Positions 1 through 16,158 of a stretch of DNA of 64,000 bases are shown piece after piece. Made by a program: the position numbers and the translations under genes. Under the pieces are notes generated by a model. It searched no databases, had not been told where the DNA came from, and saw nothing but the letters and a program-made list of their open reading frames with translations. Where the stretch lies: assembly GCF_030323025.1 (NCBI RefSeq), contig NZ_CP097329.1, forward strand, positions 4,450,001 to 4,514,000. Direction: 5' to 3'. Each line of letters starts with the position of its first letter. Positions within the stretch are counted from its first letter, which is position 1. Source of the stretch: Pseudanabaena mucicola str. Chao 1806. GTDB lineage: Bacteria; Cyanobacteriota; Cyanobacteriia; Pseudanabaenales; Pseudanabaenaceae.

Positions 1-104
1 ATAGCGGTTTTCATTTTGCCGTAGGCAAAATAAAAACTCAAAACTCTTAATGGCACTGATTTTTTGTTTTCAAATGAGTACACACTCATTTGAAAACCGC
101 TATA
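1..104. repeat. MITE-like palindromic element
   Basis: The ends are inverted repeats: ATAGCGGTTTTCA at the left edge and TGAAAACCGCTAT at 92-104. Inside are two shorter hairpins (TTTTGCCGTAGGCAAAA and TTTCAAATGAGT...ACTCATTTGAAA). There is no coding capacity. It may extend left of the window. A simpler hairpin of similar wording lies at about 57948-57985. Confidence 0.5.
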
Positions 105-113
105 GTTATTGAT

Positions 114-704
114 TTATTGATCTGTATAGTTAGCCAAGTTGATGTTTTCATAGATATCTTCAAAGGAAATATCAAATTTTACTGTTTGCAAGGATAATGC
201 TGAGTTGTCATTTCGATATTCAGACAATACCCATTTACCCTGATTTGTTTTATTAAATTGCATTACATAGTATTGATATTGGCTAATTAAAATATATTCT
301 TGAAATTCAGGGATCGAGCGATAATAATAAAATTTTTCTCCTTGATCATAATTTTGAGTCGATTTAGATAGAACTTCAACAATCAAAGAGGGATTCGTTA
401 CGGTTGTTTTGCTAGTGCCGTAATAGTTGGGTTCGCCTTCAATCAACATGATATCGGGATAAGTTGCTTCTGAGTAAGCGGGAATCCAGAGTTTAACGTC
501 ACCTATGAATATATTGTAGTTTTGTTTTTTGAGGGCAAATTTTAAGTTTGCGGCGAAGTTCAAGGCGATTTTGTTATGGTCTGTTGTGCCGCCTGTCATG
601 CTAACGATTTCTCCATTTTTATATTCATGTTTTTCCGTGGCAAGTTCCTCTATTGCTAAATATTCATCGAAGGTATAAGTTTGATTGATTAAGGTGACTG
701 TCAT
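114..704 (-). CDS. Uma2 family (DUF820) restriction-endonuclease-like protein
   Basis: A 196-residue protein with the Uma2 layout. The N-terminal segment reads FDEYLAIEE...HEYKNGEIVSM, the core is VKLWIPAYSEATYPDIMLIEG (PD followed by strand), then SLIVEVLSKST, and the end is EYILISQYQYYVMQF. In this family the PD...EVxS residues form a PD-(D/E)xK nuclease-like active site, here Asp in YPDIML and Glu in IVEVLS. Uma2 genes are expanded in cyanobacteria and often degenerate; their natural substrate is not established. The length is normal. It is the first of three Uma2 genes here; the other two lie inside the hsd operon at 5657-6887, so an association with the restriction locus is possible but unproven. 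Confidence 0.85.
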   Translation of the reverse strand: MTVTLINQTYTFDEYLAIEELATEKHEYKNGEIVSMTGGTTDHNKIALNFAANLKFALKKQNYNIFIGDVKLWIPAYSEATYPDIMLIEGEPNYYGTSKTTVTNPSLIVEVLSKSTQNYDQGEKFYYYRSIPEFQEYILISQYQYYVMQFNKTNQGKWVLSEYRNDNSALSLQTVKFDISFEDIYENINLANYTDQ

Positions 705-729
705 ATTTTTGCTCCATTTGGAAAAATAT

Positions 730-780
730 TTACTGAATGCTGACTTGCCCGATCGCTACCATCATCAACAGGCGATCGCA
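730..780 (-). pseudogene. hsdS 3'-end remnant 1
   Basis: Read on the minus strand, this translates as LLMMVAIGQVSIQ-stop, recognisably the C-terminal tail of the HsdS gene at 2815-3999 (LLPMLMNGQVSIK-stop). No more of hsdS is present. It lies directly downstream of nothing else coding and upstream of the Uma2 gene. Confidence 0.55.
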
Positions 781-798
781 TATTTCGCGTATTTGAGT

Positions 799-1057
799 TC
801 CCATTGTAGGGGTTTAGCATTTGCGCGAATATTTTGATGCCCATCACAACACTTTTAAATCGCAAATGCTAAACCCTTTCGGCAATTCATAGATAAATTG
901 TCGCTGCGTTGTGAGGTTTTGGGCAAAGCATTCCTGTTTCATGGCGATCGCAAAATTTATAAATTGTGACAGGAATGCTTTGCCCCTTGTATCTACATAA
1001 ATATTGTGTGAATCGCAATGATTTTACTTAACGCTAACTTGTCCGATCGCTACCATT
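799..1057. repeat. Paired-hairpin repeat, copy 1
   Basis: Two successive perfect hairpins: GGGTTTAGCATTTGCG with CGCAAATGCTAAACCC, then GGGCAAAGCATTCCTG with CAGGAATGCTTTGCCC. The following roughly 70 bases up to the hsdS-tail remnant are also shared with copy 2 (1637-1896). A related third copy with different but compensated stems lies at 46658-46897. No protein is evident; the short ORFs in it are not supported. Confidence 0.75.
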
Positions 1058-1065
1058 GGTAATAG
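1024..1065 (-). pseudogene. hsdS 3'-end remnant 2
   Basis: The minus-strand reading ends MVAIGQVSVK-stop, matching the last residues of HsdS (MLMNGQVSIK). It sits just 3' of hicB and at the edge of the paired-hairpin repeat. Confidence 0.5.
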
Positions 1066-1070
1066 ACTAT

Positions 1071-1310
1071 CTAGATCATATTTGAAGGAAGCGGAATAGG
1101 ATCTTGATATTGGATTGCAGCTTCAAGCCATTGTTTTTTTGCCTCAAGAATGTTATCCATAGCTTCTTGAAGATTTTCACCTGTGGAGATGCAACCAGAT
1201 AAATCTTGGATAACAACGGTATAGCCACCTTCTACTTCTGGGTAAAAAGTGATGGGATAGTTGAGGTTGATGTAGTCTTCTAAGGTCTTGAGAGTTTGTA
1301 CTGTGTTCAT
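1071..1310 (-). CDS. hicB: HicB-like antitoxin
   Basis: A 79-residue HicB-type antitoxin with the degraded-RNase-H fold pattern: ITFYPEVEGGYTVVIQDLSGCISTG, then ENLQEAMDNILEAKKQWLEAA. This is the standard HicB N-terminal domain (PEvEGGY, pDLpGc, G-x-t-xeEA). No separate DNA-binding C-terminal domain is present, as in short HicB proteins. It lies 4 bases downstream of the hicA-like gene, so the pair is cotranscribed, toxin first. Expected role: bind and neutralise the HicA mRNA interferase and repress the operon. Confidence 0.85.
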   Translation of the reverse strand: MNTVQTLKTLEDYINLNYPITFYPEVEGGYTVVIQDLSGCISTGENLQEAMDNILEAKKQWLEAAIQYQDPIPLPSNMI

Positions 1311-1314
1311 ATTT

Positions 1315-1551
1315 TTATTTATTGAGTTCTAGAAGTTTGACAATTTGTTTGAGATAAGTTCTTTTAACGGTTTGACCTCCTTTCTTTGGGATAGTTATTT
1401 TGAGACTTTTTTCATTACGAAAAGTATGATGGCTTCCTTTGTTAGATATTTCTTGGAAATTAAATTGAGTAAGAATGTAGTAAACATCGTCATAACTTAA
1501 TTCGGGTGGATCTCTTAGAAGTTTTTGGATTAGTTTTTCTAGTTTGCTCAT
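1315..1551 (-). CDS. hicA: HicA-like mRNA interferase toxin
   Basis: A 78-residue toxin of the HicA/YcfA double-stranded-RNA-binding fold. The hallmark GSHHTFRNE carries the catalytic histidine, followed by ITIPKKGGQTVKRTYLKQIVKLLEL. HicA enzymes cut mRNA independently of the ribosome. It is the first gene of the pair with hicB (4-base gap). The sequence upstream of its start is identical over about 50 bases to the 3' end and downstream flank of hsdS, so the module looks as if it was inserted or duplicated next to an hsdS tail. Confidence 0.87.
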   Translation of the reverse strand: MSKLEKLIQKLLRDPPELSYDDVYYILTQFNFQEISNKGSHHTFRNEKSLKITIPKKGGQTVKRTYLKQIVKLLELNK

Positions 1552-1567
1552 TGTTTTTGATTTAGGT

Positions 1568-1615
1568 TTATTTAATGCTAACTTGTCCGTTCATTAGCAT
1601 CGGTAGCAGCCGATC
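1568..1615 (-). pseudogene. hsdS 3'-end remnant 3 (near-identical to the living copy)
   Basis: On the minus strand this reads ...LLPMLMNGQVSIK-stop. The stretch 1558-1610 is essentially identical to 2807-2857, which holds the end of the intact hsdS and its downstream flank. It directly precedes hicA and shows that a unit carrying the hsdS tail was copied or moved recently. Confidence 0.7.
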
Positions 1616-1636
1616 GCATATTTCGCATATTTTATT

Positions 1637-1896
1637 TCCCATTGTAGGGGTTTAGCATTTGCGCGAATATTTCGATGCTCATCACGACAATTTTAAATCG
1701 CAAATGCTGAACCCTTTTGGCTATGCACAGATAAATTGTCGCTGCGTTGTGGGGTTTTGGGCAAAGCATTCCTGTTTTATGGCGATCGCAAAATTTATAA
1801 ATTGTGACAGGAATGCTTTGCCCCTTGTATCTACATAAATATTGTGTGAATCGCAATGATTTTACTTAACGCTAACTTGTCCGATCGCTATCATCA
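1637..1896. repeat. Paired-hairpin repeat, copy 2
   Basis: About 90 percent identical by eye to 799-1057, with the same two hairpins. One stem base differs (GCTGAACCC instead of GCTAAACCC), giving a G-T pair. It ends, like copy 1, in an hsdS-tail remnant. Confidence 0.75.
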
Positions 1897-1937
1897 TCAA
1901 CAGGCGATCGCCGATTTAGATTAGTTGTTGATTTTAG
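1862..1937 (-). pseudogene. hsdS 3'-end remnant 4
   Basis: The minus-strand reading is NQQLI-stop-IGDRLLMIAIGQVSVK-stop, aligning with HsdS NQQLTQLRDWLLPMLMNGQVSIK. It covers about 25 codons of the tail, with an internal stop. It overlaps the 3' end of the hypothetical gene at 1934-2338. Confidence 0.55.
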
Positions 1938-2338
1938 CGATCGCCATTATTTGTTAGAGCGTCTATCAATAAAAATTTCAGATAGTCCAGTTTTTGTAAG
2001 TATTGATGGGTGAGGGGAAATTTCTCTTTTTGAGAAAAGTATAGATCGGCAATCAAAGGATTACTTAATATAAAGGTTTGACGGAGATATTTTAATGCTT
2101 GATCTGGCTTTTGAATTTGATTAGTGATTTTTATTTGACTGGCATAACCACGCAGATCGGTAGTAATTAGGTCTATTTCTTCCATGATTGAGAATTCTTG
2201 CTCATTGAGAGAAAATGTTATGAGCGATTTAGCCTCACTTTGTTGTATTTGGTGATAGTCATGGGTTAACTGATCTAGCAGACTAATGATTTTTCTTGTG
2301 GTTTGTTCGTAAGGGTTAAGGGTTATGGTGTTAAACAT
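1934..2338 (-). CDS. Hypothetical protein, 134 aa
   Basis: I do not recognise this protein. It is mostly helical in appearance, soluble, with no signal peptide or membrane segment: SLLDQLTHDYHQIQ, then FSLNEQEFSIMEEIDLITTDLRGYASQIK, then a C-terminal helix pair DYLKFLLIDALTNN. It lies between two hsdS-tail remnants, in the position that other intervals here give to TA genes, so it may be cargo of the same kind of insertion. No partner gene is visible. Confidence 0.5.
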   Translation of the reverse strand: MFNTITLNPYEQTTRKIISLLDQLTHDYHQIQQSEAKSLITFSLNEQEFSIMEEIDLITTDLRGYASQIKITNQIQKPDQALKYLRQTFILSNPLIADLYFSQKEKFPLTHQYLQKLDYLKFLLIDALTNNGDR

Positions 2339-2384: not shown

Positions 2385-2433
2385 GCGTACCTAACATCAT
2401 GAATAGTCAATCGCGGAGTTGAGTTAGTTGTTT
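2385..2433 (-). pseudogene. hsdS 3'-end remnant 5
   Basis: On the minus strand KQLTQLRD-stop-LFMML aligns with HsdS QQLTQLRDWLLPML; the Trp codon TGG has become TGA. It abuts the stop codon of the PIN-domain fragment. Confidence 0.55.
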
Positions 2434-2566: not shown

Positions 2567-2794
2567 TCATGCCATATACTCCTGAAAGTCTTCAAGGGGC
2601 GCGTCAAAGTCGGGCGCAATTTTAATTTGTCCTTTGGCGCTGCCTCTTTGTCTTCTTTTGGATGTGGAGGATATTTGACTTAGTTTGAGAATTGGTTGAT
2701 TGTTGCGGGTGATAATGATTTCTTCGCCTTGCAGGGCGATTTGCATGAGTTGAGGGAGTTGGGTTTGGGCGTGGGTGATGTCGATTAGTTGCAT
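2567..2794 (-). CDS. Phd/YefM-type antitoxin (orphan)
   Basis: A 75-residue antitoxin. MQLIDITHAQTQLPQLMQIALQGEEIIITRNNQPILKL is the Phd/YefM DNA-binding fold; the C-terminal KIAPDFDAPLEDFQEYMA is the toxin-neutralising tail usual for VapC partners. The downstream toxin survives only as a C-terminal fragment (2432-2557). It lies 20 bases downstream of hsdS, so it may now be transcribed with the restriction operon. Confidence 0.8.
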   Translation of the reverse strand: MQLIDITHAQTQLPQLMQIALQGEEIIITRNNQPILKLSQISSTSKRRQRGSAKGQIKIAPDFDAPLEDFQEYMA

Positions 2795-2814
2795 GGTTTT
2801 ATTTTGATTTAGGT

Positions 2815-3999
2815 TTATTTAATGCTAACTTGTCCGTTCATTAGCATCGGTAGCAGCCAATCACGGAGTTGGGTTAGTTGTTGATTTTGCTTGTGATTAT
2901 TTAAAATTAGTGAATTATATTTAGAAACAATTTCATCATATTTTTTAAGGCAATCTTCTGATGGATATACAAGTTTTAAAGTATGTAAATCATCTTTATT
3001 AATCGAGCCAAATGTTGTTCCTGAATTGTTGCGATGATCAAATATGGTTTTGAAATATTGCATCACATAAAATAGATAAGAATCAAAGCCGTATTTGCTT
3101 CTGATAGATGCTAGACCTCGCCCAATACAGCAATCATTATCTGCAATATTTAATGTGCCAACTGGCGCTCTAACACTTAAAAGTATGTCTCCTTTTTTAG
3201 CTAATCTACTTGGTGCGGTTGTATATTGTCGAACTGTTGGAAATCTCCAGCCAAAATCAGTTGAACCTTGAAAAAATATTTCTCCTTTTTTTTCTTCATT
3301 ATAAGATGAGCCATCAGGAGATTGCCCCATTGTAATATCTGCAATATCTGATAATTTCTTAACTTCCCAACCCGTAGGAATAGCCCGATCGCCTTTTCCT
3401 TCTTCCACATATACCATCTCACCGCCAGAAGACTTATAGGGCTTGCCATCTGCACTAGGCTTGCCCTGAGCGAAGTCGAAGGGAAAGTCAAACTGCACAA
3501 ACCAATAATCATAAATTGTCTTAGCCAGACTCTCTAACTCAGCATTAATCCGATTATTCAGTTCAATTTTGGCATCAAGAGCAGAAAGAACATTTGCGAT
3601 TCTTTTCTGTGTGTCAATGTTTAAATAGGCTAAAACCTTTAAAGGATGTAAATGATTCCTATTCATTGTAGGAACACCCGATCCACTTTTTTGACTTTGT
3701 AGCCCTAAAGTTTTTAGTAGATAAAAGATATATTTAGGCTCATTTCCTTTGAAATCTTTTACAAACAACGATGTGTTGTGAGGAAAGAAATTTTCATTTA
3801 TAAAATGAGGTAATCCAACAGTCCCACTTCTACCAATCGTAATACCCGGTCCAATGACTTTATATTCATCATGGTATCCAAGAATTCCATTTGAAGAGAT
3901 AACAGGATATTTCCCGAAATTAAAATCTGATTTTGGCAGATCATAGCCTCTTTGAAATTCAATTAAATCACCTAAAGTAGTAGTAGAAATTTTACTCAT
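2815..3999 (-). CDS. hsdS: Type I restriction-modification specificity subunit HsdS
   Basis: A 394-residue protein with two target-recognition domains (about 1-130 and 205-345). Each is followed by a conserved helical region: IDTQKRIANVLSALDAKIELNNRINAEL in the middle and LILNNHKQNQQLTQLRDWLLPML at the end. It gives DNA sequence specificity to the HsdM2S methylase and the HsdR complex. The start overlaps the hsdM end by 8 bases (translational coupling). Oddity: residues about 173-179 (PFDFAQG) are encoded by an in-frame palindromic repeat at 3464-3483, a type common between genes in cyanobacteria, so the linker seems to have absorbed a small repeat. At least five degenerate copies of its 3' end lie downstream. 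Confidence 0.93.
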   Translation of the reverse strand: MSKISTTTLGDLIEFQRGYDLPKSDFNFGKYPVISSNGILGYHDEYKVIGPGITIGRSGTVGLPHFINENFFPHNTSLFVKDFKGNEPKYIFYLLKTLGLQSQKSGSGVPTMNRNHLHPLKVLAYLNIDTQKRIANVLSALDAKIELNNRINAELESLAKTIYDYWFVQFDFPFDFAQGKPSADGKPYKSSGGEMVYVEEGKGDRAIPTGWEVKKLSDIADITMGQSPDGSSYNEEKKGEIFFQGSTDFGWRFPTVRQYTTAPSRLAKKGDILLSVRAPVGTLNIADNDCCIGRGLASIRSKYGFDSYLFYVMQYFKTIFDHRNNSGTTFGSINKDDLHTLKLVYPSEDCLKKYDEIVSKYNSLILNNHKQNQQLTQLRDWLLPMLMNGQVSIK

Positions 4000-5626
4000 A
4001 CTTCAACCCCGCCAACTGCTTCTTAATCTCAACCTCCAAATTCCTAGACTCCGCAAAAAAGCGATCTAGATTACTTGAAAAAGACCTTAACTTCTCCTCA
4101 AACTCAGCCTGCGAAATATCCACATACTCGATTTTTACATCAAAATACTGACCCGCACTCAATGAATAATTTTTAGCCGCGATTTCCTCATAACTCACCA
4201 CCACCGAAAAATCATCGATCGCCTTCTTATCATTAAACGTTGAGATAATTTGCGCCTCCTCCGCCTCCGTTAACACCGTCTTCTGATTCTTACCATCCTT
4301 CACCGTCTCCCCCAACCCAGACGCATCAATCAACACCACATCGCCCTGATTGCCACGATCCATAAATAAAATCGACACATTCGTACCCGTCGTTGCAAAG
4401 ATATTGCTCGGCATTGATACCACACCCGCCAACATCCTCTCATCCACCAACTTCTCACGGATCGCCCGATCAATTCCCGACTGCGCCGTAATAAACCCCG
4501 TCGGAACCACAACAGCCGCCTTACCCTTGGGCTTTAGGGAATAGATAATATGCTGCAAAAATAGCGTATAAATCGCCATCTTATCCTTCGCCTTATTCGG
4601 AACCTTGGGAATCCCCGCAAAAAAGCGCTCATTATTAGCCTTAGTATCTAAATTATTCACATAATCGCTAAAATCCATCTTAAACGGCGGATTGGACACA
4701 ATGTAATCAAACTTTGCTAATTCTGCCCCCTGCTTGTGATAGGGATGCTCCAACGTATTCCCCTGAATGATATTGGGAATCGAATGCACCAAATTATTTA
4801 AAATCAAATTCAACCGCAATAAACTCGAAGACTTCTGCGAAATATCCTGCGAATAAATCGTACAGCGCTCCTCACCGATCGCATGGGCAATACTCATCAA
4901 CAAAGTCCCCGAACCCGCCGAAGGATCATAAACCGTCACATTCTGCACAGGCTGACTCACCAAAATCGCCGCCATAATCCGCGCCACCGCATGGGGTGTA
5001 TAGTATTCGGCATACTTACCGCCACTATCCTTGTTATAGTCCTTAATCAAATACTCAAACAAAGTCGCAAAAAAATCATACTTCTGCGTAAAAATATGTT
5101 CCGCACTAAATTTGATTAGCTGATTAATCACCGCCCGACAAAAATTATCTCGCTTAGAAGTATCCGTAATAAACTCAGTCACCCTATCAAACAACGGAAT
5201 CTTGGTATCCCCTTCCGTTTTGACTGAGAAAATATCATTATTTTGAAACGCGATATCGATCAACGTATCATCAAATAATTTTGCAAAGTTCTTATCATTC
5301 TGCTTCTCATACAAAGTCGCGATAAAATGATCGGGCTTTAAATTTGCCGTATTCGATGGCAATTGCAGCAACATAAACTCATAATCAGCCTCAGACATTC
5401 CCCTTAACGCACTTTCCCAACTTGGCGACTGAGCGATAATATCTGGCACAGCTTGCTTCACCTCAAAAGCAAACTTATCATTCATCAACTTATAGAGAAA
5501 CACCTGCGTAATAATCTTAAACTCATTCCCATCATTCCCCAACCCATAGGAAGCACAAATCCCCTTCAATCCATCAATCAAATCCCTAATCTTCTGCCCA
5601 AAATCTGTATCGTTTAGTTGATTCAT
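3992..5626 (-). CDS. hsdM: Type I restriction-modification methyltransferase HsdM
   Basis: A 544-residue N6-adenine DNA methyltransferase. An N-terminal helical HsdM domain (about 1-160) is followed by the catalytic Rossmann domain. The SAM-binding motif DPSAGSGTLL lies near residue 233 and the catalytic SNPPF near 311. The length is normal. It forms the modification enzyme with HsdS and is required for HsdR cutting. It is coupled to hsdS by overlapping ends and preceded by two Uma2 genes, with hsdR further upstream, all on the same strand. No frameshift or lost motif is visible, so the system may be active. Confidence 0.95.
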   Translation of the reverse strand: MNQLNDTDFGQKIRDLIDGLKGICASYGLGNDGNEFKIITQVFLYKLMNDKFAFEVKQAVPDIIAQSPSWESALRGMSEADYEFMLLQLPSNTANLKPDHFIATLYEKQNDKNFAKLFDDTLIDIAFQNNDIFSVKTEGDTKIPLFDRVTEFITDTSKRDNFCRAVINQLIKFSAEHIFTQKYDFFATLFEYLIKDYNKDSGGKYAEYYTPHAVARIMAAILVSQPVQNVTVYDPSAGSGTLLMSIAHAIGEERCTIYSQDISQKSSSLLRLNLILNNLVHSIPNIIQGNTLEHPYHKQGAELAKFDYIVSNPPFKMDFSDYVNNLDTKANNERFFAGIPKVPNKAKDKMAIYTLFLQHIIYSLKPKGKAAVVVPTGFITAQSGIDRAIREKLVDERMLAGVVSMPSNIFATTGTNVSILFMDRGNQGDVVLIDASGLGETVKDGKNQKTVLTEAEEAQIISTFNDKKAIDDFSVVVSYEEIAAKNYSLSAGQYFDVKIEYVDISQAEFEEKLRSFSSNLDRFFAESRNLEVEIKKQLAGLKYE

Positions 5627-5656
5627 AATATTTAAAATAGATGATTAGACAGATAA

Positions 5657-6259
5657 TTAAAAAGATAACTCTTGAAACAACTCAGTTAAAGCCAGACTAA
5701 AATTAGGAATTACATCCTCCCCATCCAAACTATCCTCTAACTTCAATAACTTTGATGGCTTTGGCTGATGATACACCAATACCGACTCCTCATCAGGCAA
5801 AATTACCCATGCCAAACGAGTTCCATTTTCAAAATATTCCACCAGCTTATTATGAATCTCTTCAAAGGTATTGCTAGGCGAAATAATCTCCACCGCAAGA
5901 TCGGGCGCACCCTCAAAAAATCCCTTTGGTAAACGCTTGACCCCTTGCAACCTTGAACGATCAATAAATGCTAAATCAGGCGATCGCTTATTCCCCGTCT
6001 TCATTTTAAAAGCCGTACTCGAATCACAGGTCACACCGAGCTTATTCACCCTCACAAACCCTGTCAAAAAATACCCCAGTACCAACGCTAAATATCCATG
6101 CTCTAAACCTGAATTTGCCACAATTACTAATTCTCCATCCACATATTCATAGCAATTTCCATCATCAGGCAAAGACATAAACTGTTCATCGGTCATACTT
6201 TGCGAAGCGGTTGTGTCTTGAGTATTTAAGGTATTAGGTAAGGCGATCGCTTGAGTCAT
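5657..6259 (-). CDS. Uma2 family protein in the hsd operon (second of the pair)
   Basis: Uma2/DUF820 protein. MTDEQFMSLPDDGNCYEYVDGELVIV is the N-terminal sheet; RSPDLAFIDRS holds the PD motif; DLAVEIISPSNTFEEI holds the Glu-x-x-Ser motif; LAWVILPDEESVLVY closes the fold. I chose the ATG at 6259, which leaves a 4-base gap to the upstream Uma2 gene; an earlier start at 6286 would overlap it. All nuclease-like residues seem present. It sits between hsdR and hsdM, an unusual place, and may be passenger or accessory nuclease. Function is unproven. Confidence 0.85.
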   Translation of the reverse strand: MTQAIALPNTLNTQDTTASQSMTDEQFMSLPDDGNCYEYVDGELVIVANSGLEHGYLALVLGYFLTGFVRVNKLGVTCDSSTAFKMKTGNKRSPDLAFIDRSRLQGVKRLPKGFFEGAPDLAVEIISPSNTFEEIHNKLVEYFENGTRLAWVILPDEESVLVYHQPKPSKLLKLEDSLDGEDVIPNFSLALTELFQELSF

Positions 6260-6263
6260 CGTT

Positions 6264-6887
6264 TTAAGCTCCCATTCCTGCTGCAAAAATCTGATTAGCC
6301 ATCAAGTTCAATTCTGGAAAAGTCGGAGATATAACTCGCGCATCTCCCTGAAATGTAGTCACCTGATATTCGCCATCAATTAACTCATGCACTAAAATCG
6401 TCGGCTGTTTCGGATTGCCGATAAATCTTCTGCCGCCAATCCCCAAATAATCCACCGTCCAATACTCAGGAATCCCCATCTCTTCGTAATCTTTAGCCTT
6501 AATAAAATAATCATCGCGCCAATTAGTACTCACCACCTCGATCGCAATTACAATTGAGGCTCCTTGAATAATTGTCGATTGCTTTTCCCACAATGGCTCA
6601 TTCACCAAATTAGCAGTTTTGACAATTAGAATATCAGGCAAATAAGCAGAATCAGCATCAGGCAATTTGAGAAATGCGTTACTTGGCAAAAAATAAGGCA
6701 ACTTTGCTAACTTCACCAAAAAGGCAATTTCAATACTCAAAAATCCCTTAACTTGCTCATGCGTTCCAACAGGCTGTGACATCTCAACAATTACTCCATT
6801 GTGCAACTCATAAAAACCCTGCTCAGGCTTCCACTCAACAAACTCATCAAAAGTGACTAACTGTGTTTTCGCTACGGCTAGAACCAT
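6264..6887 (-). CDS. Uma2 family protein in the hsd operon (first of the pair)
   Basis: Uma2/DUF820 protein of about 207 residues. TFDEFVEWKPEQGFYELHNGVIVEMS begins the fold; SAYLPDILIVKTANL carries the PD; SIVIAIEVVSTNWRDDY carries the Glu-Val-Val-Ser strand; EYWTVDYLGIGGRRFIG follows. I prefer the ATG at 6887 (MVLAVAK) over a TTG seven codons earlier. It starts 42 bases downstream of hsdR and is followed within 4 bases by a second Uma2 gene. The two are divergent paralogues rather than a recent duplication. Confidence 0.85.
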   Translation of the reverse strand: MVLAVAKTQLVTFDEFVEWKPEQGFYELHNGVIVEMSQPVGTHEQVKGFLSIEIAFLVKLAKLPYFLPSNAFLKLPDADSAYLPDILIVKTANLVNEPLWEKQSTIIQGASIVIAIEVVSTNWRDDYFIKAKDYEEMGIPEYWTVDYLGIGGRRFIGNPKQPTILVHELIDGEYQVTTFQGDARVISPTFPELNLMANQIFAAGMGA

Positions 6888-6929
6888 CTCTATGTACCTA
6901 CCTTGCAATTACGTTTTCCTATTATAACT

Positions 6930-9900
6930 TTAAGCCCCGCCCCCATTAAATTCATTCATATATTCCTTCACCACCAGATTATTGATATAGGTTGAGGTTT
7001 CCGCATTGAGCTTGATCTTTTGCTGCGTAAACTGAGCAATCAGCAACCGAATCATCTCTTTACTAAAATAAACCTCGTTATTGAGAATCTTCGTATTTTG
7101 CAAAACAAACCCATCCGCATCAACCTTTACGCCTAGCAACACCTCACAGATTTTGCGCTCCGTTGCCGACAATTTGCCCCACTCAACCAATCGCTTATGC
7201 AACCTCACATACTTAGGATCATGGTCATATTTCGCCTTTAATAGGTTATTTTGACGATTAAGCTCCTTAATCTTTTCATAAATCTTATTCAGACTGGCAA
7301 TATTCGCGTTCATCTCCTCTTGGCTCACCTCACTCAGTTTTTTCTGCTTAAACAAACGCTCTAGCTCATCTTTCAACTTCACAAATTTCGGATCAGTCTT
7401 ATCAAAATTATCCGCCAAAGCCTCACGGGTTCGCCTCAATGTATTCTTGAGCTTATCCGCCAGCACCAATTCCTCTTCTCCCACCTTCACAAAGGAGAAG
7501 ATCACATCTTCCAAGGCTTCATTCAATAAGTTAGTGACATCCACACCACTTTCTAATCTTGCACTCAGATTAATCGCATCTAAACGATTACTAGCCTCAC
7601 GATACAAATCACCTAATTTCTGAAAATCCAACTTTTCTAAAAGTTCATAATGACCCGTCAACCGAATCAAGTTATAAAGGCTTTTCGCATTCCCTAAAAC
7701 CTTTTTTAGAGCTAAAACTGTTTCTCTGTCCTGTATTTGGCTAATCTGTTGCGAGAAAATCTCCGCGTTTGCCGTGTCATAGCGAAATAGAACATCCTCA
7801 ATTTCCGCAATCTCCGATTCTATCTCTTCCTTTGATTTAAACAAATTGGAGTAATGCTCTAACTCATCCCCCAATTCTGCCTGCAATTCATCAAAATAAG
7901 CCTTATTAGTCGCATCAAATTCCTTCCGAATATCGGCAAAATCCACCACAAAACCATAGCGAAAATCCTGATAGGGGCGATTAACGCGAGTTAGTGCCTG
8001 TAGCAAGTTATGTTTCTTGATCACCCGTCCTAAATAGAGCTTTTTCAGGCGCTTTGCATCAAATCCAGTCAGCAGCATATTGTAAACAAACAACAGATCG
8101 ATCCTACCTTCCCTAAACTCCTCAACCCAGTTTTTGCGCTCATCTTTTGTGCCAATATCATGAAGAATCAACGCCGCAGTCAGCTTTGATTTCTGCTTTT
8201 TCTGATTGAGCAGAACCTCATACTCCGCGCTGACATCACTGAGGCGAGAAGATGGATTTTGCGGATTTTGCGGATTTGGAAATCTTTCTAGAAAGATCTC
8301 ATGAAGCATTTTTGCCTGTTCTGAGCTATCACAAATCACCATCCCGCCAATGGTGCGATCGCCAAAACGTGATCGGCTCTGCTCAAAATCTTGCAGGATA
8401 TAGTCCAGCAAAGGCTCCACATATTGCCGATGAGCAAATATTGACTGCTTATCGATCGCGCCTTTCAACACCTCAGCAGTTTCTAAAGCCTTTTGCAAAA
8501 CCAGCTTATAGGTAGTTTCAATCTCCTCACGGATCAGTCGTAACGTATACCCATCAGCGATCGAAGCATTGTAATAATACTTGTGAATATAATCACCAAA
8601 TAATCCTTTTGAGTTATATTCATCGCCTAATAGAGGTGTTCCCGTTAAACCAATCAAGATCGCATTGCGATCCGATTCGACTAGATTTACTAAAAATTGA
8701 CCAGTTGGCTTATAACTGCGATGTACCTCATCTAAAAAATAAATACGCTGAATATTTACATCGTAATCTTCAGTTTTTAAGACGTTAGGATCATCTTTAA
8801 ATTTCTGAATATTAACCACTGTAATCTCTGACCTGCCTGACAAGTTATGAATCACACTAGTAGATTTAATATCCTTCGTAAAAGCCTCCCTTGAGTCGAT
8901 CGCATGGACAATTAAGCCCCGACTGGTAAATTCTTTTTTGGCTTGTTCTAACAAATCAAGGCGATCGACTATGAAATAAAACTTAGGGACAATCTTTTTG
9001 CTTTGATAATAATCCGTCAAAAACTTGACACTATAAAAAGCCAAAGCCGTCTTACCACTGCCCTGAGTATGCCAAATAATCCCCTTGTTGATGCCATTAT
9101 CCAAAGACTTGGCGATCGCTCTAGTCGCGAAAATCTGCGGATAACGCATAATATGCTTCTGCCAGCCGTTTGTGTCTTTTACATAGGCGATCGCATATCT
9201 CAAGATAAATTGCAGGCGATCGCGGCTAAACAACGAGGTTAATAGACGATTGGTTGGCGCATGGGGCGATTTGTTAGTAATAAATTCAGGATTATGCTTA
9301 ATAATCTGGTAATTATTATCTTTGAGAACATAGTTCTCGATCGCTTCACTTTCGGTGCTTAACAAGGTTTCTAAATCAAGAGATTCTTCTTCTCGAAAGA
9401 AATTAAAAGTATGTTTTTGATAGGAAGGAGAAGCATAAAACGCGCCTTGAATCGGTAAAGGTGATTCACTGTCATATTCCATGTTGTTGGAGAAGATCAT
9501 CAACTGCGTGATATTGGCAAATCTTCGGAACTTCTTATTCTGAAAACGCCTGTCAATGCGATCGCGTTCAGTTATAGCTCCTTCTCTGTTGTTAGGCTTT
9601 TTTACCTCCACAAAAGCTAAAGGCATTCCATTAATCAGTAAAACAATATCAGGGCGAAACTCTTCTTCTCCATTTCTAAAGGTAAACTCCGTCACCACAT
9701 GAAAACTATTGCGATCGAAGTTCTCAAAATCAATCAACTTATAGCCCGACTGATCAATTAACCGTTCATAAAAAGTCTTGCCCAGATCATTATTGTCTAA
9801 AACGAAGCGAATCTCAGCTAATAACCTAGCTATGTCATCTTCTTCAATTAGCGGATTGATTTCAGCAATACTTTTCTTGAAAATATCAGCAAAGATATTT

Positions 9901-10007
9901 GTTGTATCATCCCATACGGCATTTTTTAACGATAAGTATTCATACCCTAGTCGATGCAGGTGTAATACTGAAGGCAGCTTTACTCTGGAGTCTTCATTAA
10001 AAGCCAT
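6930..10007 (-). CDS. hsdR: Type I restriction endonuclease subunit HsdR
   Basis: A 1025-residue motor nuclease. The N-terminal PD-(D/E)xK nuclease shows RPDIVLLINGMPLAFVEVKK (about 117-137). Then come two RecA-like helicase domains with Walker A HTQGSGKTALAF (about 312), the DEVH box in YFLDEVHRSYKP (about 420), SAT-like GLTGTPL, and the late motif TGFDAKRLKKLYLGR with ALTRVNRPY. The C-terminal third is helical (HsdM/S docking). It translocates DNA with ATP and cuts unmodified DNA. It is the first gene of the operon; the promoter should lie in 10008-10050. No disruption is seen. Confidence 0.95.
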   Translation of the reverse strand: MAFNEDSRVKLPSVLHLHRLGYEYLSLKNAVWDDTTNIFADIFKKSIAEINPLIEEDDIARLLAEIRFVLDNNDLGKTFYERLIDQSGYKLIDFENFDRNSFHVVTEFTFRNGEEEFRPDIVLLINGMPLAFVEVKKPNNREGAITERDRIDRRFQNKKFRRFANITQLMIFSNNMEYDSESPLPIQGAFYASPSYQKHTFNFFREEESLDLETLLSTESEAIENYVLKDNNYQIIKHNPEFITNKSPHAPTNRLLTSLFSRDRLQFILRYAIAYVKDTNGWQKHIMRYPQIFATRAIAKSLDNGINKGIIWHTQGSGKTALAFYSVKFLTDYYQSKKIVPKFYFIVDRLDLLEQAKKEFTSRGLIVHAIDSREAFTKDIKSTSVIHNLSGRSEITVVNIQKFKDDPNVLKTEDYDVNIQRIYFLDEVHRSYKPTGQFLVNLVESDRNAILIGLTGTPLLGDEYNSKGLFGDYIHKYYYNASIADGYTLRLIREEIETTYKLVLQKALETAEVLKGAIDKQSIFAHRQYVEPLLDYILQDFEQSRSRFGDRTIGGMVICDSSEQAKMLHEIFLERFPNPQNPQNPSSRLSDVSAEYEVLLNQKKQKSKLTAALILHDIGTKDERKNWVEEFREGRIDLLFVYNMLLTGFDAKRLKKLYLGRVIKKHNLLQALTRVNRPYQDFRYGFVVDFADIRKEFDATNKAYFDELQAELGDELEHYSNLFKSKEEIESEIAEIEDVLFRYDTANAEIFSQQISQIQDRETVLALKKVLGNAKSLYNLIRLTGHYELLEKLDFQKLGDLYREASNRLDAINLSARLESGVDVTNLLNEALEDVIFSFVKVGEEELVLADKLKNTLRRTREALADNFDKTDPKFVKLKDELERLFKQKKLSEVSQEEMNANIASLNKIYEKIKELNRQNNLLKAKYDHDPKYVRLHKRLVEWGKLSATERKICEVLLGVKVDADGFVLQNTKILNNEVYFSKEMIRLLIAQFTQQKIKLNAETSTYINNLVVKEYMNEFNGGGA

Positions 10008-10031: not shown

Positions 10032-10143
10032 TCAAAAATGGCTGTATCGAATAACTGGGAAGCCAATCTTGTCATCAATTAGTTCTATATTATCCATATC
10101 AGAGAGTAAACAGTCCAGCCAACTGACTAACTCATACTCATAG
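10032..10143 (-). pseudogene. C-terminal remnant of an unknown gene
   Basis: The minus-strand frame YEYELVSWLDCLLSDMD followed by NIELIDDKIGFPVIRYSHF-stop looks like a genuine protein end. It has no start and is cut off at 10144 by a MITE-like repeat. It lies just upstream of hsdR on the same strand. I cannot name the family. Confidence 0.35.
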
Positions 10144-10220
10144 TAAGTAGCTAGACATAAGTAAACTAAAAACCGAGAGTTTTGTTCCGCCCGCGTAGCG
10201 GGCGGAACAAAACTCTGGTT
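10144..10220. repeat. 104-bp MITE-like element, truncated copy
   Basis: It starts TAAGTAGCTAGACATAAG and contains the GC-rich hairpin TTCCGCCCG...CGGGCGGAA. It matches the complete copies at 32072-32175 and 56873-56976 up to about 10220, where it joins a broken IS4 transposase gene. The right third of the element is missing. Confidence 0.8.
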
Positions 10221-10917
10221 CATCCTCAAGACGCATCGCCGCAATATAGAGCCAATGTTGCCAAACTAGTCTGGGCTTGGACAATACCTTGGATTGACCA
10301 ACTTGGAGATCTTGGAAACAAACGTCAGCTCTTAGTTGTTTCTGCCCATCGTTAAGCAAGGTGTTTTTACGAATACGGATACGAAAGCGGGTACATGGGT
10401 CACAAAGCAGGTAATCAAACCATTCTTCCCCCACAAATTCTCGGTCTGCGGTCAAAAAGTCGATTTTGCGATCTCCAAATATTTCCAGAAATCGATTACA
10501 CAATTCACAACGTTCACGGGTGTTCGAGTTACCTTTTTTATCCAGCATCATCCATACCAATGGGAATGCGATACCGTGATGCACTACTCCCAATGTCAGC
10601 TCATTAAATACTGTCTTACCAAATCTCCAATCGGTGCGGTCGATACTGATTACCCATGGTTCAGGTATTTTCATCACTTTGACGACCATGAAAGCGATGC
10701 TTTCATAGTCCACTTCAAATTCTCGAAAAAATCTCTGTAATCTCTTATAGTGTGATTCGACTTTGGCTTCACCTCTAAATCCTGTAGCGATTTCGACTAG
10801 GTTTACTGTCTTTACTCGCATTAGTGCGATCAGGAACATCGACACAAATAAGAGTCTTGCTCTATTCCATTGCAGATGTTCATGCAACTTTTCGCGAAAT
10901 ACGCTAATCTCTTTCAT
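10221..10917 (-). pseudogene. IS4-family transposase, C-terminally truncated
   Basis: The first 230 or so residues match the intact transposase at 62646-63707 with only isolated differences (for example V/D in TVNLVEIA). The first two acidic residues (SIDRTDW and LTADREF) are kept. The third, in the Y-x2-R-x3-E-x6-K signature, is deleted. The frame now runs into repeat sequence and ends with unrelated residues. Confidence 0.9.
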
Positions 10918-12500: not shown

Positions 12501-13256
12501 GGATAAGATTACAAAAGAAACTTTAGTCACGTAATTATCGATGCCAAATTGTCCAAACTGTAACTCAAAAGATGTTGTCAAAAATGGATTTATTCATAAC
12601 GGGAATCAAAACCATAAATGCAAAGCCTGTGGTCGCCAGTTTGTGGAAGCACCAAGGCAAAAACTAATCTCTGAAGAAACCAAAGCCTTGATTGACAAAC
12701 TCTTACTTGAGAAGATTCCTCTTGCAGGTATTGCCAGAGTTTGTGACGTTTCTGAAACTTGGTTGCAGGATTATGTCAATCGTAAATACAAGGTGATTCC
12801 TCAAAAAGTGAATGTATCCGCTAAAAAAAGGAAGACTAACGATTCAGTGTGATGAGATGTGGTCATTTGTTGGTAATAAAGGCAACAAACAATGGATTTG
12901 GCTTGCTCTTGATATCGAAACCCGCAAAATTATTGAGGTTCATATCGGCGATCGCTCCGAACAAGGAGCCAAAAAACTCTGGGACTCTTTACCCAGTGTC
13001 TACCGTCAGTGTGCGGTCGCTTATACAGATTTTTGGAGAGCTTACGCTCTTGTATTTCCTACACCCCGTCACAAACCTGTGGGAAAGGAATCTGGTAAAA
13101 CCAATTATATTGAGCGGTTTAACTGTACGATGCGGCAACGCGTTTCCCGATTAGTTCGTAAAACTCTCTCCTTCTCCAAAAAACTAGAAAATCACATTGG
13201 TGCTATCTGGTTTTTTATTCATCACTACAACTCATCCTTACTTGTTTAGGACTACC
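12482..13256 (+). mobile_element. IS1-family insertion sequence
   Basis: About 775 bp, the usual IS1 size. The short ends are inverted (GGTAGTCC at 12482 and GGACTACC ending 13256). I see no clear target duplication, so one flank may have been rearranged. It is inserted in the 3' end of the Phd-like antitoxin gene. Confidence 0.85.
12541..13249 (+). CDS. IS1 transposase, two frames (InsA/InsB-like)
   Basis: The first frame (12541-12852) has the zinc-finger CPNCNSKDVVKNGF...HKCKACGRQF and a helix-turn-helix. The second frame (to 13249) has the DDE domain: CDEMWSFVG, AYTDFWRAY and YIERFN with RLVRKTLSFSKKLENHIGAI. The frames meet at a run of seven A at about 12832. The second frame is displaced by +1 (equivalently -2) from the first, not the classical -1 of IS1. 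With six or nine A the two would form one continuous ORF. So this is either slippage-dependent or a one-base frameshift in a single-ORF transposase. Confidence 0.85.
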
Positions 13257-13268
13257 CAATTATTTATC

Positions 13269-13340
13269 TTTGCGATCGCCAACAATCTATCGGAACTCAT
13301 CAACGAAGCAGATAATTTTTGCTTGCTTAAACTTGGCTGA
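13269..13340 (+). pseudogene. Possible C-terminal gene fragment after IS1
   Basis: The open frame FAIANNLSELINEADNFCLL KLG-stop, directly after the right end of IS1, looks like an amphipathic C-terminal helix. It does not continue the interrupted antitoxin in any obvious way. I cannot name it. Confidence 0.2.
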
Positions 13341-13372
13341 TAATAGACAACTTTAATGAACGTATCGGTTAG

Positions 13373-13458
13373 GCATAACGGTTGAACTCACCCGCCGCCA
13401 CTAACTTTGGATGATAAGGTTAGCTTGAAGTGCGGTCGGGTGCAGTGATTTGTTATGC
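13373..13458 (-). other. attC A, distal end of the cassette array
   Basis: Outer cores GCATAAC (left) and GTTATGC (right) are exact reverse complements, the attC pattern. The inner arms CTCACCCGCCGCCA...GTGCGGTCGGGTG pair partly. It ends the cassette carrying 13482-14846. The recombination core on the minus strand is GTTATGC. Nothing integron-like is seen further left. Confidence 0.75.
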
Positions 13459-13481
13459 CTTTATCCAATAGGTTCTTTTTT

Positions 13482-13796
13482 CTACCTTCCACATTCTGGA
13501 ACTATTTCATGATAAATATGCTTATCCTTAGTTAATCTGGCATCTAATTGAATTAATGGACGATAAAACTGACACAATCTTTTTTCATTTTCTAGTAATT
13601 CGGGTTGAAAATCTTTACTATTAGGATAGTGATAATCTGCGGACTGCCTAGTGCCACGAAAAGACCATACTTTACCATCCCATGAAAAACTTTCTCTCTT
13701 ACCAAAATACGCAAGAAATACAAAAGAAATAACATAAAGAAATAACAGCAAAAAAAATATCTTGCCTGCGAAGTAAATCCATTTCTTATAGCCCAT
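13482..13796 (-). CDS. Small membrane-anchored hypothetical protein
   Basis: 104 residues. One N-terminal transmembrane helix or uncleaved signal (IYFAGKIFFLLLFLYVISFVFLAYF) is followed by a polar domain with three or more cysteine/aromatic positions (LCQFYRPLIQLDAR...VPECGR). I do not recognise the family. It is the last gene of the terminal integron cassette, 14 bases after the larger gene 13811-14846, and the attC lies 24 bases beyond its stop. Probably cotranscribed with its neighbour. Confidence 0.55.
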   Translation of the reverse strand: MGYKKWIYFAGKIFFLLLFLYVISFVFLAYFGKRESFSWDGKVWSFRGTRQSADYHYPNSKDFQPELLENEKRLCQFYRPLIQLDARLTKDKHIYHEIVPECGR

Positions 13797-13810
13797 CTTA
13801 ATGAATATGC

Positions 13811-14858
13811 CTAATTTAAGATATTCTTTAGCCTTGACATATAACTAGCTTTCCTTTGACCTGCACCTTCAGGATCAGGCTGAGGACTTGGGTTGACTCC
13901 CTTAGGAGTAGTTGTTCCAACTGTGTAGAGATACAAGATCACAGGATAATTTTTCGATATGTCTACTCCTCCTTTTCGCCAAAAATCGACAATTCTTTGT
14001 AACTCAGCCGCCACAGCATAAGGTGCTTTCTGAGGATTAAGCAGAAACTTGATAGTTGCATCTGTTGAATCCTTATTCCATTTAGGTGGAGGATCTATAT
14101 AACCTTGATTCACTAACTCTTTAAATCTTCTCAACTGCATTTGAGCAATCCCAATCGATACTTCGTCTAAAGGCTTTAAACCCGCAGATGCTTGTATTAA
14201 AAATCTACCAAATGATTTGGCAAAGTCATTGTCGTTAAGCGATATTTGTCCCCCTGAATTTTGAAATTGGTCTAAAATATCCTCAAATGCAATTTCATCA
14301 TACATAATTGCCGCTATCATCTCTGTCGTTATATCAGGATAGCGATCTTGTGCTCCTGCTTTTTTAATGCACTTTCTTAAGTTGTAAAGAACAATTTCAA
14401 TTCGATCAAGTCCGATATTTACGTCATATCTAAACTTGAAGGTCAAATTAGTGCGAACGATCTTCCGCACTGGTCCTTCATTCAAGTCTGCTGAATGTGT
14501 AAATTCAAAAACACCACTGTACAAAAATTCATCTGGTTTATAAGGAATTTCATAGTAGCTCTCAATTTTTACATCATCTGGATAGGTAGGGTCATCTTCA
14601 TGTAACTCAATTAGGAACTTGATGTTAAATCCTTTAGTCGTCGAAGATGTATCGAAGCGTAAGTCTCCAATCGTAAATAGTAACTTACTTGTTTTAAACG
14701 ATGTAATTTTTGCTTCGTACCACAACGGCATCTTAGGTGGTGGGAGAGACCTTATAGCTCTAATTTTTAGAGTTGGAGTACCTATGCCTTTACCATCCGA
14801 AGTTGAGATGTCTAGCTTTTCCAAATATATTTTGGCTTCTATTTCTTGAGATGTAGAC
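13811..14858 (-). pseudogene. Cassette gene split at codon 4 by an IS4-family element
   Basis: About 345 codons follow the insertion (13811-14858). Joining across the transposon and its 9-base duplication restores MSTSQEIEAKIYLEKLDI, with the ATG at about 16168. The remaining reading frame is intact but has lost its start; a TTG at 14824 could serve. The middle contains ITTEMIAAIMYDEIAFEDIL and SIGIAQMQLRRFKEL, which resembles lysozyme/transglycosylase-like SIGxAQ segments, and the C-terminal end is proline rich. A peptidoglycan or toxin-like role is only a guess. It lies in the last integron cassette, followed by the small membrane protein gene. Confidence 0.65.
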
Positions 14859-16158
14859 CTGATTGACTGACAAAAGTCTAGGAAGAGTAGTCGAGAATAG
14901 AAGCATAGAACTCAATACGGAAGAATTTCTGGCGATGTTTTCGATGAGAAGCCATAGCAGGCTCAGAGTCAAGATAAGAAGTAAAAGGTTCAGAAGGGAA
15001 AAAAGTCCAGTTTTTAGTAAGAGCAGTGTGAATCCAGTTCCAGCCAATTTTAAGATAACTAAGCCCACGAAACCAATGAGGATCAACCAAACGACGATAG
15101 CCAGAATCAGCAACCGCTAGCCCTTGGGCAGTCAGAAACAAAGTAGTCATAGCAACAACAAAACAAAGGCGGGAAATAGCAGGAGCCGAACGTAAACGCG
15201 AAGATTCCAAGTCAAAGCCATTGGATTTGTCATCCAAGAAGTTTTCCTCAATATCGAACCTAAGCCCATACTCCCAGAAAGTCTTGATGGTGGTGGGTTC
15301 AGTGCTGAGAATATACCAATACTCGCGGCTATGAGATTCCCAAGCCGCCGCAATATGTACATTAGTAAGACGCTTAGACTCAGTTTTATGGACTAGGACA
15401 TTGTGGAGCAACTTGGCTTCACCAAGACGAAGATGTAATTGGTTGACAGTTTGCCAGCGATTCTTGGGATGATGTATCCAGAAATTTCCCTTGATCCTAA
15501 TCCGACATTGCCACTTTAATTGACGGACATAGTGCACCAATTCTGGATTAGCAAATCCTCGGTCGGCTAATAAAATCACTTTGATATTCATGGGTAATAG
15601 TTTCGATGCTCGTTGAAACATGTCCCGATAGCTACTCATCTCCACACTGCTACTGCGATGTTCGATGACACGCCAACATAAGGGCAAAGCTCTTCCCCGA
15701 TGCACTACACACAATCGAATGATGCAGTATTTTTTCCACAGTTGGCTCGTATCAAAGCTTAGATAGATTTCTCGCTCTTTCCAGTTTGACAATAACTCTT
15801 TGATCACTGGACTGTACAGCTTGGCGGGATTGATCCTTGGATTATTTAGCCATCTTGACAGTTGCCTTTGGGTACTTTGGGCAATTAATGCTTTGGTGTT
15901 GATGTGGCTTAGCCATTTGGTTAAATTTACACTCCCTGTAGCGATCATTCCTACCATCATCCATACCATTACTCCTAAATGGCGCACATCTGACCAGTCA
16001 CTGTATTGACTCCCGAATTTTGTTAGTTCATTATAGATACGTGAGGCGTTTTGGGTCATTTGTCCTATGCTCCTTTTTCTTCAAAAAACAGCATACGCCT
16101 CTTTTTTACTCAAATTCAATCTCTGTATACTTTCTTGCTACTTTTGTCAGTCAATCAG
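14859..16158 (-). mobile_element. IS4-family element in the last cassette
   Basis: 1300 bp with perfect 18-base terminal repeats CTGATTGACTGACAAAAG and its complement, flanked by a perfect 9-base target duplication GATGTAGAC (14850-14858 and 16159-16167). The intact duplication implies a recent, unrearranged insertion into the start of the cassette gene. Confidence 0.93.
14878..16059 (-). CDS. IS4-family DDE transposase
   Basis: 393 residues. The acidic triad is visible: YLSFDTSQLWKK, VILLADRGFANPEL, and YGLRFDIEENFLDDKSNG, which is the Y-x2-R-x3-E-x6-K signature of IS4 transposases. Full length with no stop, so probably active. It is the only gene of its element. Confidence 0.92.
   Translation of the reverse strand: MTQNASRIYNELTKFGSQYSDWSDVRHLGVMVWMMVGMIATGSVNLTKWLSHINTKALIAQSTQRQLSRWLNNPRINPAKLYSPVIKELLSNWKEREIYLSFDTSQLWKKYCIIRLCVVHRGRALPLCWRVIEHRSSSVEMSSYRDMFQRASKLLPMNIKVILLADRGFANPELVHYVRQLKWQCRIRIKGNFWIHHPKNRWQTVNQLHLRLGEAKLLHNVLVHKTESKRLTNVHIAAAWESHSREYWYILSTEPTTIKTFWEYGLRFDIEENFLDDKSNGFDLESSRLRSAPAISRLCFVVAMTTLFLTAQGLAVADSGYRRLVDPHWFRGLSYLKIGWNWIHTALTKNWTFFPSEPFTSYLDSEPAMASHRKHRQKFFRIEFYASILDYSS

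What the first reader, a model, noticed from the sequence alone, without database searches (positions are those of the whole stretch)
5657..6887. Two Uma2 genes built into a type I restriction operon
Between hsdR and hsdM are two divergent Uma2 (PD-(D/E)xK-like) genes with short gaps and no promoter-sized space, and a third lies just past the locus. Uma2 function is unknown; a repeated link to hsd operons would suggest an accessory nuclease role in defence.
Basis: partly seen in the sequence, partly recalled or inferred. Interest (0 to 1): 0.5.

Follow-up and report, generated by a model that had tools for sequence, protein, structure and literature searches.

The report
Uma2 genes embedded in restriction operon
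In a Pseudanabaena cyanobacterium two small nuclease-like genes of unknown job sit in the middle of a DNA-restriction operon, probably inserted one after the other; such operons look like landing slots for many kinds of small accessory genes, not for this kind alone.

Summary
But the effect looks like one of the slot: XisH, XisI and DUF29 are concentrated there at least as strongly per kb, and only about 1% of the genus's Uma2 candidates lie in hsd interiors. UWO311 carries the same operon with Uma2b but without Uma2a. The 16 Uma2 proteins aligned keep the H/PD/E/K site; dN/dS is 0.03-0.13. PADLOC's phage-defence candidate PDC-S03 matches all three Uma2 proteins, so the idea is known though, as far as I saw, untested. 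Newer is that inserted accessory genes are often followed by a copy of the upstream hsd gene's 3' end (14 of 122 junctions, 4 of 488 control pieces); a nine-copy hsdS-tail array with toxin-antitoxin and Uma2 cassettes follows hsdS here, in another order than in UWO311.

The parts
6930..10007 (-). hsdR, type I restriction subunit, 1025 aa
   Evidence: Pfam HSDR_N, SWI2_SNF2, ResIII, T1R_D3-like; 82% identical to the UWO311 protein
6264..6887 (-). Uma2b, 207 aa, older resident of the hsdR-hsdM junction
   Evidence: Pfam Uma2; PADLOC PDC-S03, E 4.1e-89; counterpart at the same place in L028; dN/dS 0.13
5657..6259 (-). Uma2a, 200 aa, probably a later insertion between Uma2b and hsdM
   Evidence: Pfam Uma2; absent at this site in L028, where 22 bp stand in its place; nearest relatives at other loci
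3992..5626 (-). hsdM, type I methyltransferase, 544 aa
   Evidence: Pfam N6_Mtase; PADLOC MTase_I; 90% identical to UWO311
2815..3999 (-). hsdS, specificity subunit, 394 aa; overlaps hsdM by 8 bp
   Evidence: Pfam Methylase_S, two stretches; 39% identical to UWO311 HsdS
2814..2890 (-). hsdS 3' tail, the reference copy of the repeat
2570..2794 (-). cassette: Phd/DUF2281-like antitoxin gene, followed by a toxin-like remnant
   Evidence: Pfam DUF2281, PhdYeFM below its cut-off; the remnant is read from the sequence only
2392..2432 (-). hsdS tail copy, 78% over 41 bp
1937..2338 (-). cassette: 134 aa ORF, no Pfam match, conserved in UWO311
1861..1935 (-). hsdS tail copy, 77% over 75 bp
1567..1632 (-). 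hsdS tail copy, 86% over 66 bp
1074..1551 (-). cassette: HicA toxin and HicB antitoxin genes
   Evidence: Pfam HicA_toxin, HicB_lk_antitox
1023..1071 (-). hsdS tail copy, 78% over 49 bp
729..795 (-). hsdS tail copy, 67% over 67 bp
114..704 (-). Uma2c, 196 aa, cassette of the hsdS-tail array
   Evidence: Pfam Uma2; 93% identical counterpart in L028 between two tail copies
1..19 (-). edge of a further tail copy (-57 to 19); two more lie left of the window at about -307..-250 and -1093..-1019
   Evidence: L091 joined to the window

Best explanation
This is a type I hsdR-hsdM-hsdS operon whose gene junctions serve as landing slots for small accessory genes, and two Uma2 genes landed in the hsdR-hsdM slot, Uma2b first. 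Shown: relatives of the operon in other phyla mostly have hsdR abutting hsdM; UWO311 has Uma2b but not Uma2a; both genes have intact frames and sites, low dN/dS, the operon's direction and almost no gaps. Inferred: they are co-transcribed with hsd and act as self-contained PD-(D/E)XK-type nucleases expressed along with restriction, probably as a second defence or addiction layer, not as subunits of the type I enzyme. Inferred from the tail repeats: many such genes enter and move by recombination that uses, or leaves, a copy of the upstream hsd gene's 3' end, which recreates the junction for the next gene. Uma2a and Uma2b themselves show no tail copy, so their route of entry is unknown.
For: Site without Uma2a in UWO311. 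hsdR and hsdM within 150 bp in 63 of 77 related loci, two of the 77 being Pseudanabaena. Interior excess 15 against 1.31, flanks 4 against 4.25; with one representative per HsdR cluster (19 clusters) 6.3 against 0.64-0.95. Interior inventory with XisH/XisI, DUF29, PIN, Schlafen-AlbA, PemK, YhcG, Fic; XisI, XisH and DUF29 clusters have 8, 7 and 8 members inside against 1, 1 and 3 in 620 kb of random DNA, Uma2 13 against 12 (names checked on two members each). dN/dS: Uma2a 0.08-0.13, Uma2b 0.13, Uma2c 0.03, hsdR 0.08. H, PD, E, K invariant in 16 of 16 aligned Uma2 proteins. Uma2b has diverged from UWO311 at silent sites about as far as hsdR (dS 1.7 and 1.5). Tail copies at 14 of 122 junctions against 4 of 488 control pieces.
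Against: No expression data; co-transcription rests on spacing and direction. dS values are near saturation. Absence of Uma2a in UWO311 could also be a loss. Two Uma2 (L081, L083) are antisense to their operon, which fits insertion but not co-expression. By number of operons Uma2 is the most widespread family of the slot (11 of 37, against 6 for the next of those compared), which leaves room for a Uma2-specific link. Only 6 of 19 HsdR clusters in the genus and 2 of 24 in the class carry Uma2. Random DNA has tail copies too (10 of 417 genes).
Confidence: 0.58

Rival explanations
1. Uma2 is a dedicated accessory nuclease of type I restriction: it finishes off DNA that the type I enzyme has cut or stalled on, and is kept in the operon for that reason.
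For: Strong interior excess with flanks at background; conserved site and low dN/dS; Uma2b stayed with hsdR since the split from UWO311; Uma2 is found in 11 of 37 genus operons, more than XisI, XisH or DUF29; hsd label clustered on the Uma2 tree, 9 changes against a shuffled mean of 14.9, 0 of 500 as low.
Against: 6 of 30 loci of Uma2b relatives (two of them this operon) and 4 of 30 of a second clade (one the query itself) have an hsd gene within 1.5 kb; of all 71 Uma2b matches in the genus, 7 fall at interior places of the census. 26 of 37 genus operons have no interior Uma2. Other unrelated families fill the same slot. The tree's clustering is partly due to orthologous operons and to sampling hsd loci.
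Confidence: 0.17
2. Uma2 genes are selfish, randomly spreading elements, as proposed by Feder and Bujnicki 2005, and operons such as hsd or hox merely tolerate them.
For: 84 matches in this genome; earlier report of virtually random insertion without a methyltransferase link (PMC551604, sections read); a DUF820 (Uma2) gene inside the Synechocystis hox operon (PMC4963859, passages); Uma2a looks like a recent arrival.
Against: Placement is not random here: interior excess of about 11-fold with flanks at background. Low dN/dS. No repeat brackets Uma2a or Uma2b: the repeat finder on 5500-7100 gave eight short two-copy families (12-19 nt), none at the insert's ends; 3' ends of Uma2 had no extra copies in 0 of 34 tested.
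Confidence: 0.25

Closest known systems
PADLOC PDC-S03 (phage-defence candidate, single gene)
   Same: PADLOC models PDLC04832-PDLC04835 match all three Uma2 proteins here, Uma2b with E 4.1e-89; PDC entries are described as coming from a guilt-by-embedding survey (passages of PMC10855318 and PMC12988326).
   Different: Candidate only. The word PDC-S03 has no occurrence in the papers of the held library that the search listed, and the source preprint (Payne et al. 2024) is not held, so its text was not read.
[quoted passage not shown] coli E2348/69
   Same: A toxin-antitoxin module inside a type I operon, the site being called a potential recombination hotspot (PMC12255303, passages).
   Different: A two-gene pair in another junction, in an island with tested anti-phage activity; here single Uma2 genes in the hsdR-hsdM junction.
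prrC in the EcoprrI type IC operon
   Same: A nuclease gene embedded in an hsd operon (PMC3874165, passage).
   Different: PrrC is an anticodon nuclease held by the type I complex; no such contact was tested for Uma2.
COG4636/Uma2 family (1wdj, 6okh, 9y1l, 3ot2)
   Same: Same family by sequence and same PD-EXX-K site.
   Different: The 2005 study found no methyltransferase link; this census finds an excess inside hsd operons of one genus.

Membership tests
Uma2 / COG4636 | Match to Pfam PF05685 over its cut-off | tested here: met
   111, 104.3 and 107 bits against a cut-off of 27
Uma2 / COG4636 | PD-(D/E)xK variant site: His, PD, E, and Lys moved to a helix | tested here: met
   H, PD, E and K invariant in 16 of 16 aligned proteins; residues as given in PMC551604 section 6; their spatial place was not modelled here
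Uma2 / COG4636 | Nuclease activity | not testable with these tools
   no biochemical data
Type I restriction-modification operon | hsdR, hsdM, hsdS close together on one strand | tested here: met
Type I restriction-modification operon | R-M-S order as in relatives without inserts | tested here: met
   70 of 80 related loci read R-M-S; hsdR and hsdM within 150 bp in 63 of 77
PADLOC PDC-S03 | Match to the PADLOC models | tested here: met
   best E 1.2e-16 (Uma2a), 4.1e-89 (Uma2b), 3.2e-24 (Uma2c)
PADLOC PDC-S03 | Anti-phage activity | not testable with these tools
   candidate class; no test seen in the passages read
Integron cassette array (considered for the hsdS-tail array) | Cassettes flanked by attC sites that keep an inverted repeat | tested here: inconclusive
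   read by eye only: degenerate tail copies lose the short inverted repeat of the hsdS tail; no integrase search was run

The most novel reading that the evidence does not exclude
Type I restriction operons carry a self-perpetuating cassette slot: accessory genes enter at the stop codon of an hsd gene together with a copy of that gene's 3' end, so every next gene keeps its native stop-start junction, and repeated tails then let cassettes (toxin-antitoxin pairs, Uma2, YhcG, Abi) be added and shuffled by homologous recombination, an integron-like array without an integrase.
Probability: 0.3. Interest if true: 0.7.

Novelty: new member of a known kind. Interest (0 to 1): 0.42.

Why it matters
It turns a hunch about an abundant unexplained family into numbers: embedded Uma2 is in excess in hsd operons of one genus, but as one guest among many. 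That argues against reading a restriction role from context alone, a caution for guilt-by-embedding in general. The repeated hsd tails, if upheld, would explain how guests get in without breaking the host operon and would give a sequence mark for finding new embedded defence genes.

Tried and rejected
Hsd-exclusive Uma2 subfamily: the first tree suggested two clades whose 6 of 6 rows each were in or beside hsd genes, but the sample had been drawn partly from hsd loci. Searches from the proteins gave 6 of 30 and 4 of 30, so this was dropped. The 30 are the loci the tool handed out, not all matches (71 for Uma2b). I counted hsd matches of at least 40 bits: L262 and L263 (this operon and its same-species copy), L264 (a 44-bit piece), L269, L270, L279. 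Left out were L267 (24 bits) and L273 (30 bits); L271 lies in an hsd operon whose hsd genes fall outside 1.5 kb. Some loci are cut short by contig ends.

Integron array: considered for the hsdS-tail repeats; the copies do not keep an inverted repeat (by eye), no integrase search was run, so not claimed.

Tail copy or other bracketing repeat at the Uma2a/Uma2b junction: looked for by eye and with the repeat finder, none found.

Promoter and terminator scan: 19 promoter-like sites against 20.9 in shuffles, uninformative.

Independent-operon check: collapsing HsdR at 70% or 50% identity leaves the excess in the genus (6.1-6.3 against 0.61-0.95), but in the class it falls to 1.1-1.2 Uma2 against 0.31-1.05, so no firm excess is claimed outside Pseudanabaena.

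Limits of the census. 44 of the 46 genus loci come from HsdR matches (the window's own match is represented by its same-species copy L027) and two (L021, L023) from methylase matches. Nine of the 46 (L021, L031, L035, L036, L071, L075, L088, L090, L094) and nine of 49 class loci had no second hsd gene in reach and were dropped; 31 of 37 and 32 of 40 have all three kinds. Uma2 was found with a home-made HMM that recovers 30 of 30 of the own genome's best Uma2 loci; the weaker 54 of the 84 own matches were not tried. Expected counts scale first-look candidate numbers by 84/92, a calibration from one genome. Random regions (31 stretches of 20 kb at round coordinates, four genomes) gave 14 Uma2 in 620 kb, somewhat denser. 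The 15 interior ORFs include one split gene in L093 (14 genes) and orthologous operons. For the inventory 150 of 162 interior ORFs were scanned; left out were the same-species locus L029 (7), L099 (4) and one of L022. The alignment holds 15 of the 17 interior Uma2 genes (14 genus, 3 class) plus Uma2c; the split gene of L093 and the short L079:3144-3662 were left out. Pfam's list shows the first 25 of 77 families, and the two PIN models may share proteins.

Full report
WHAT IS THERE. The window is G000:C1:4450001-4514000 of a 4.53 Mb single-contig genome. On the minus strand stand hsdR (6930-10007), Uma2b (6264-6887), Uma2a (5657-6259), hsdM (3992-5626) and hsdS (2815-3999). Gaps are 42, 4 and 30 bp, then an 8 bp overlap. 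A third Uma2 (114-704) follows hsdS on the same strand.

TWO ARRIVALS. In 63 of 77 loci with an HsdR related to this one, two of the 77 being Pseudanabaena and the rest titled as other phyla, hsdR and hsdM lie within 150 bp, so the slot was probably empty at first. L028 has hsdR, one Uma2 matching Uma2b, hsdM, hsdS and a counterpart of Uma2c; window 6285-5628 is replaced there by 22 bp. Uma2a is therefore an insertion in this lineage or a loss in the other. Its nearest relatives (80-84% identical) stand at other places in G015, G011 and G008, with no hsd match in 19 kb, which favours insertion. Uma2b and hsdR have similar silent divergence from UWO311 (dS 1.7 and 1.5), hsdM much less (0.47), so hsdM has probably been exchanged while Uma2b stayed. 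The larger dS values are near saturation.

FUNCTIONAL CONSTRAINT. dN/dS is 0.13 for Uma2b, 0.03 for Uma2c and 0.08-0.13 for Uma2a against its relatives. The residues H, PD, E and K are invariant in 16 of 16 Uma2 proteins aligned, 13 of them from other hsd operons (15 of 17 interior genes plus Uma2c, see Tried and rejected). They correspond to the site described for COG4636 (PMC551604, section read). Sequence relatives with solved structures are 1wdj, 6okh, 9y1l and 3ot2 for Uma2a and 6okh for Uma2b.

IS THERE AN EXCESS? Of these 37 and 40 hold hsdR plus at least one other hsd gene. In the genus the interior non-hsd space is 87.1 kb with 15 Uma2 ORFs against 1.31 expected from genome counts (Poisson P 1e-11), or about 2.0 from random regions (14 Uma2 in 620 kb); the flanks, 290.6 kb, hold 4 against 4.25. 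With one representative per HsdR cluster the figure is 6.3 against 0.64-0.95 (19 clusters, 6 with any Uma2). In the rest of the class it is 3 in 81.4 kb against 0.73 (P 0.04), and 1.1-1.2 against 0.31-1.05 after collapsing. So the excess is firm in Pseudanabaena and doubtful beyond it. This differs from the 2005 finding of no methyltransferase link (PMC551604), whose cyanobacterial members came to 84% from six genomes.

IS IT ABOUT UMA2? Of 150 interior ORFs scanned, 15 match Uma2, 8 DUF29, 8 XisI, 7 XisH, 7 PIN and 6 PIN_3 (possibly the same proteins), 6 Schlafen-AlbA, 4 each YhcG, PemK and Fic. XisI, XisH and DUF29 clusters have 8, 7 and 8 members inside against 1, 1 and 3 in 620 kb of random DNA; the Uma2 cluster has 13 against 12 (names checked on two members each). 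The random counts are small, but per kb Uma2 is, if anything, less concentrated than these. Against this reading, Uma2 is spread over 11 operons and the others over 6, 6 and 4. The 15 interior ORFs compare with 1,573 first-look Uma2 candidates in the 20 genus genomes with hsd loci, 38-104 each. In the own genome Uma2 is also near Cas1 (3 of 5 within 5 kb, rotation P 0.017; 2 of 5 within 3 kb, P 0.059) and, not significantly, near N6 methylases (4 of 12, P 0.067; 3 of 12, P 0.089). From the protein side, 6 of 30 loci of Uma2b relatives and 4 of 30 of a second clade have an hsd gene within 1.5 kb, the queries' own operons included. On a tree of 87 Uma2 rows the 16 hsd-embedded ones need 9 changes against 14.9 in shuffles: clustered, but of several origins.

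TAIL COPIES. Downstream of hsdS the 3' end of hsdS is repeated: nine copies including its own from 2890 to -1093, the last three at or beyond the window's left edge. Between them stand small cassettes: an antitoxin-like gene with a remnant, a 134 aa ORF, HicA/HicB, Uma2c, and further remnants. L028 has five copies and counterparts of four cassettes in another order (A, Uma2c, HicAB, ORF134 instead of A, ORF134, HicAB, Uma2c). Across 122 hsd junctions with 250-5000 bp of extra DNA, 14 hold a copy of the upstream hsd gene's 3' end, against 4 of 488 pieces from inside the same genes (P 1e-7) and 10 of 417 random genes (P 1e-4). Anywhere in a locus, extra tails occur in 11 loci for 137 HsdS tested, 10 for 136 HsdM and 4 for 173 HsdR, against 1 for 138 pieces near the hsdS 5' end; not all of these lie beside an insert. 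In L022, L185, L205, L210, L213, L223 and L228 an accessory ORF starts on the hsd stop, and in L205, L213 and L223 the ORF after the tail copy starts on the copied stop too; L187, L217 and L218 lack such an overlap, and in L040 the copy comes before the accessory gene. I infer that the copy keeps the next gene's junction. How it arises is not shown. The Uma2a/Uma2b slot has no tail copy.

KNOWN OR NEW. PADLOC models named PDC-S03 match all three Uma2 proteins; PDCs are described as candidates from a guilt-by-embedding survey, mostly unvalidated (passages; the preprint itself not held). DarTG2 inside hsd (PMC12255303, passages), PrrC inside hsd (PMC3874165, passage) and Uma2 inside hox (PMC4963859, passages) are precedents. 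So the pair is a new instance of a known kind. For the tail copies three full-text searches gave 0, 0 and 2 papers (the two were seen as listings only), which covers only open-licence papers and those words.

VERDICT. The slot and its tail copies deserve the follow-up more than Uma2 as such.

Noticed in passing
window 2890 to 1, continuing to about -1093 in L091: Nine copies of the hsdS 3' tail separate small toxin-antitoxin, Uma2 and unknown cassettes; cassette order differs from UWO311 (L028).
   Followed up: yes
window 729-1028 and 1567-1866: Two 300 bp direct repeats, 91% alike, that hold a MITE-like piece (about 240 bp) next to tail copies; a similar piece lies left of the window.
   Followed up: no
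window 729-795, 1861-1935; L028 14911-14995, 15908-15992: Degenerate tail copies carry GCGATCGC or most of it (HIP1 motif of cyanobacteria, name recalled) where the hsdS original has other letters.
   Followed up: no
G000:C1:1400000-1416000 (L021): A second hsdM-hsdS pair of this genome has Uma2 genes on both sides, two of them relatives of Uma2b and two another close pair.
   Followed up: partly
G000:C1:3191602, 3320210, 3621807, 3623649: Uma2 genes stand within a few kb of Cas1 matches of the own genome.
   Followed up: partly
L181 (Flavobacteriales MAG) 15734-17731; L156 (Flavobacterium MAG) 13078-14035: hsdM and hsdR tail copies after inserted genes outside cyanobacteria, so the mark is not confined to this phylum.
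   Followed up: no
window 10138-10917: Transposase (DDE_Tnp_1) ORF just upstream of hsdR with a strong terminator-like hairpin at 10216-10176.
   Followed up: no
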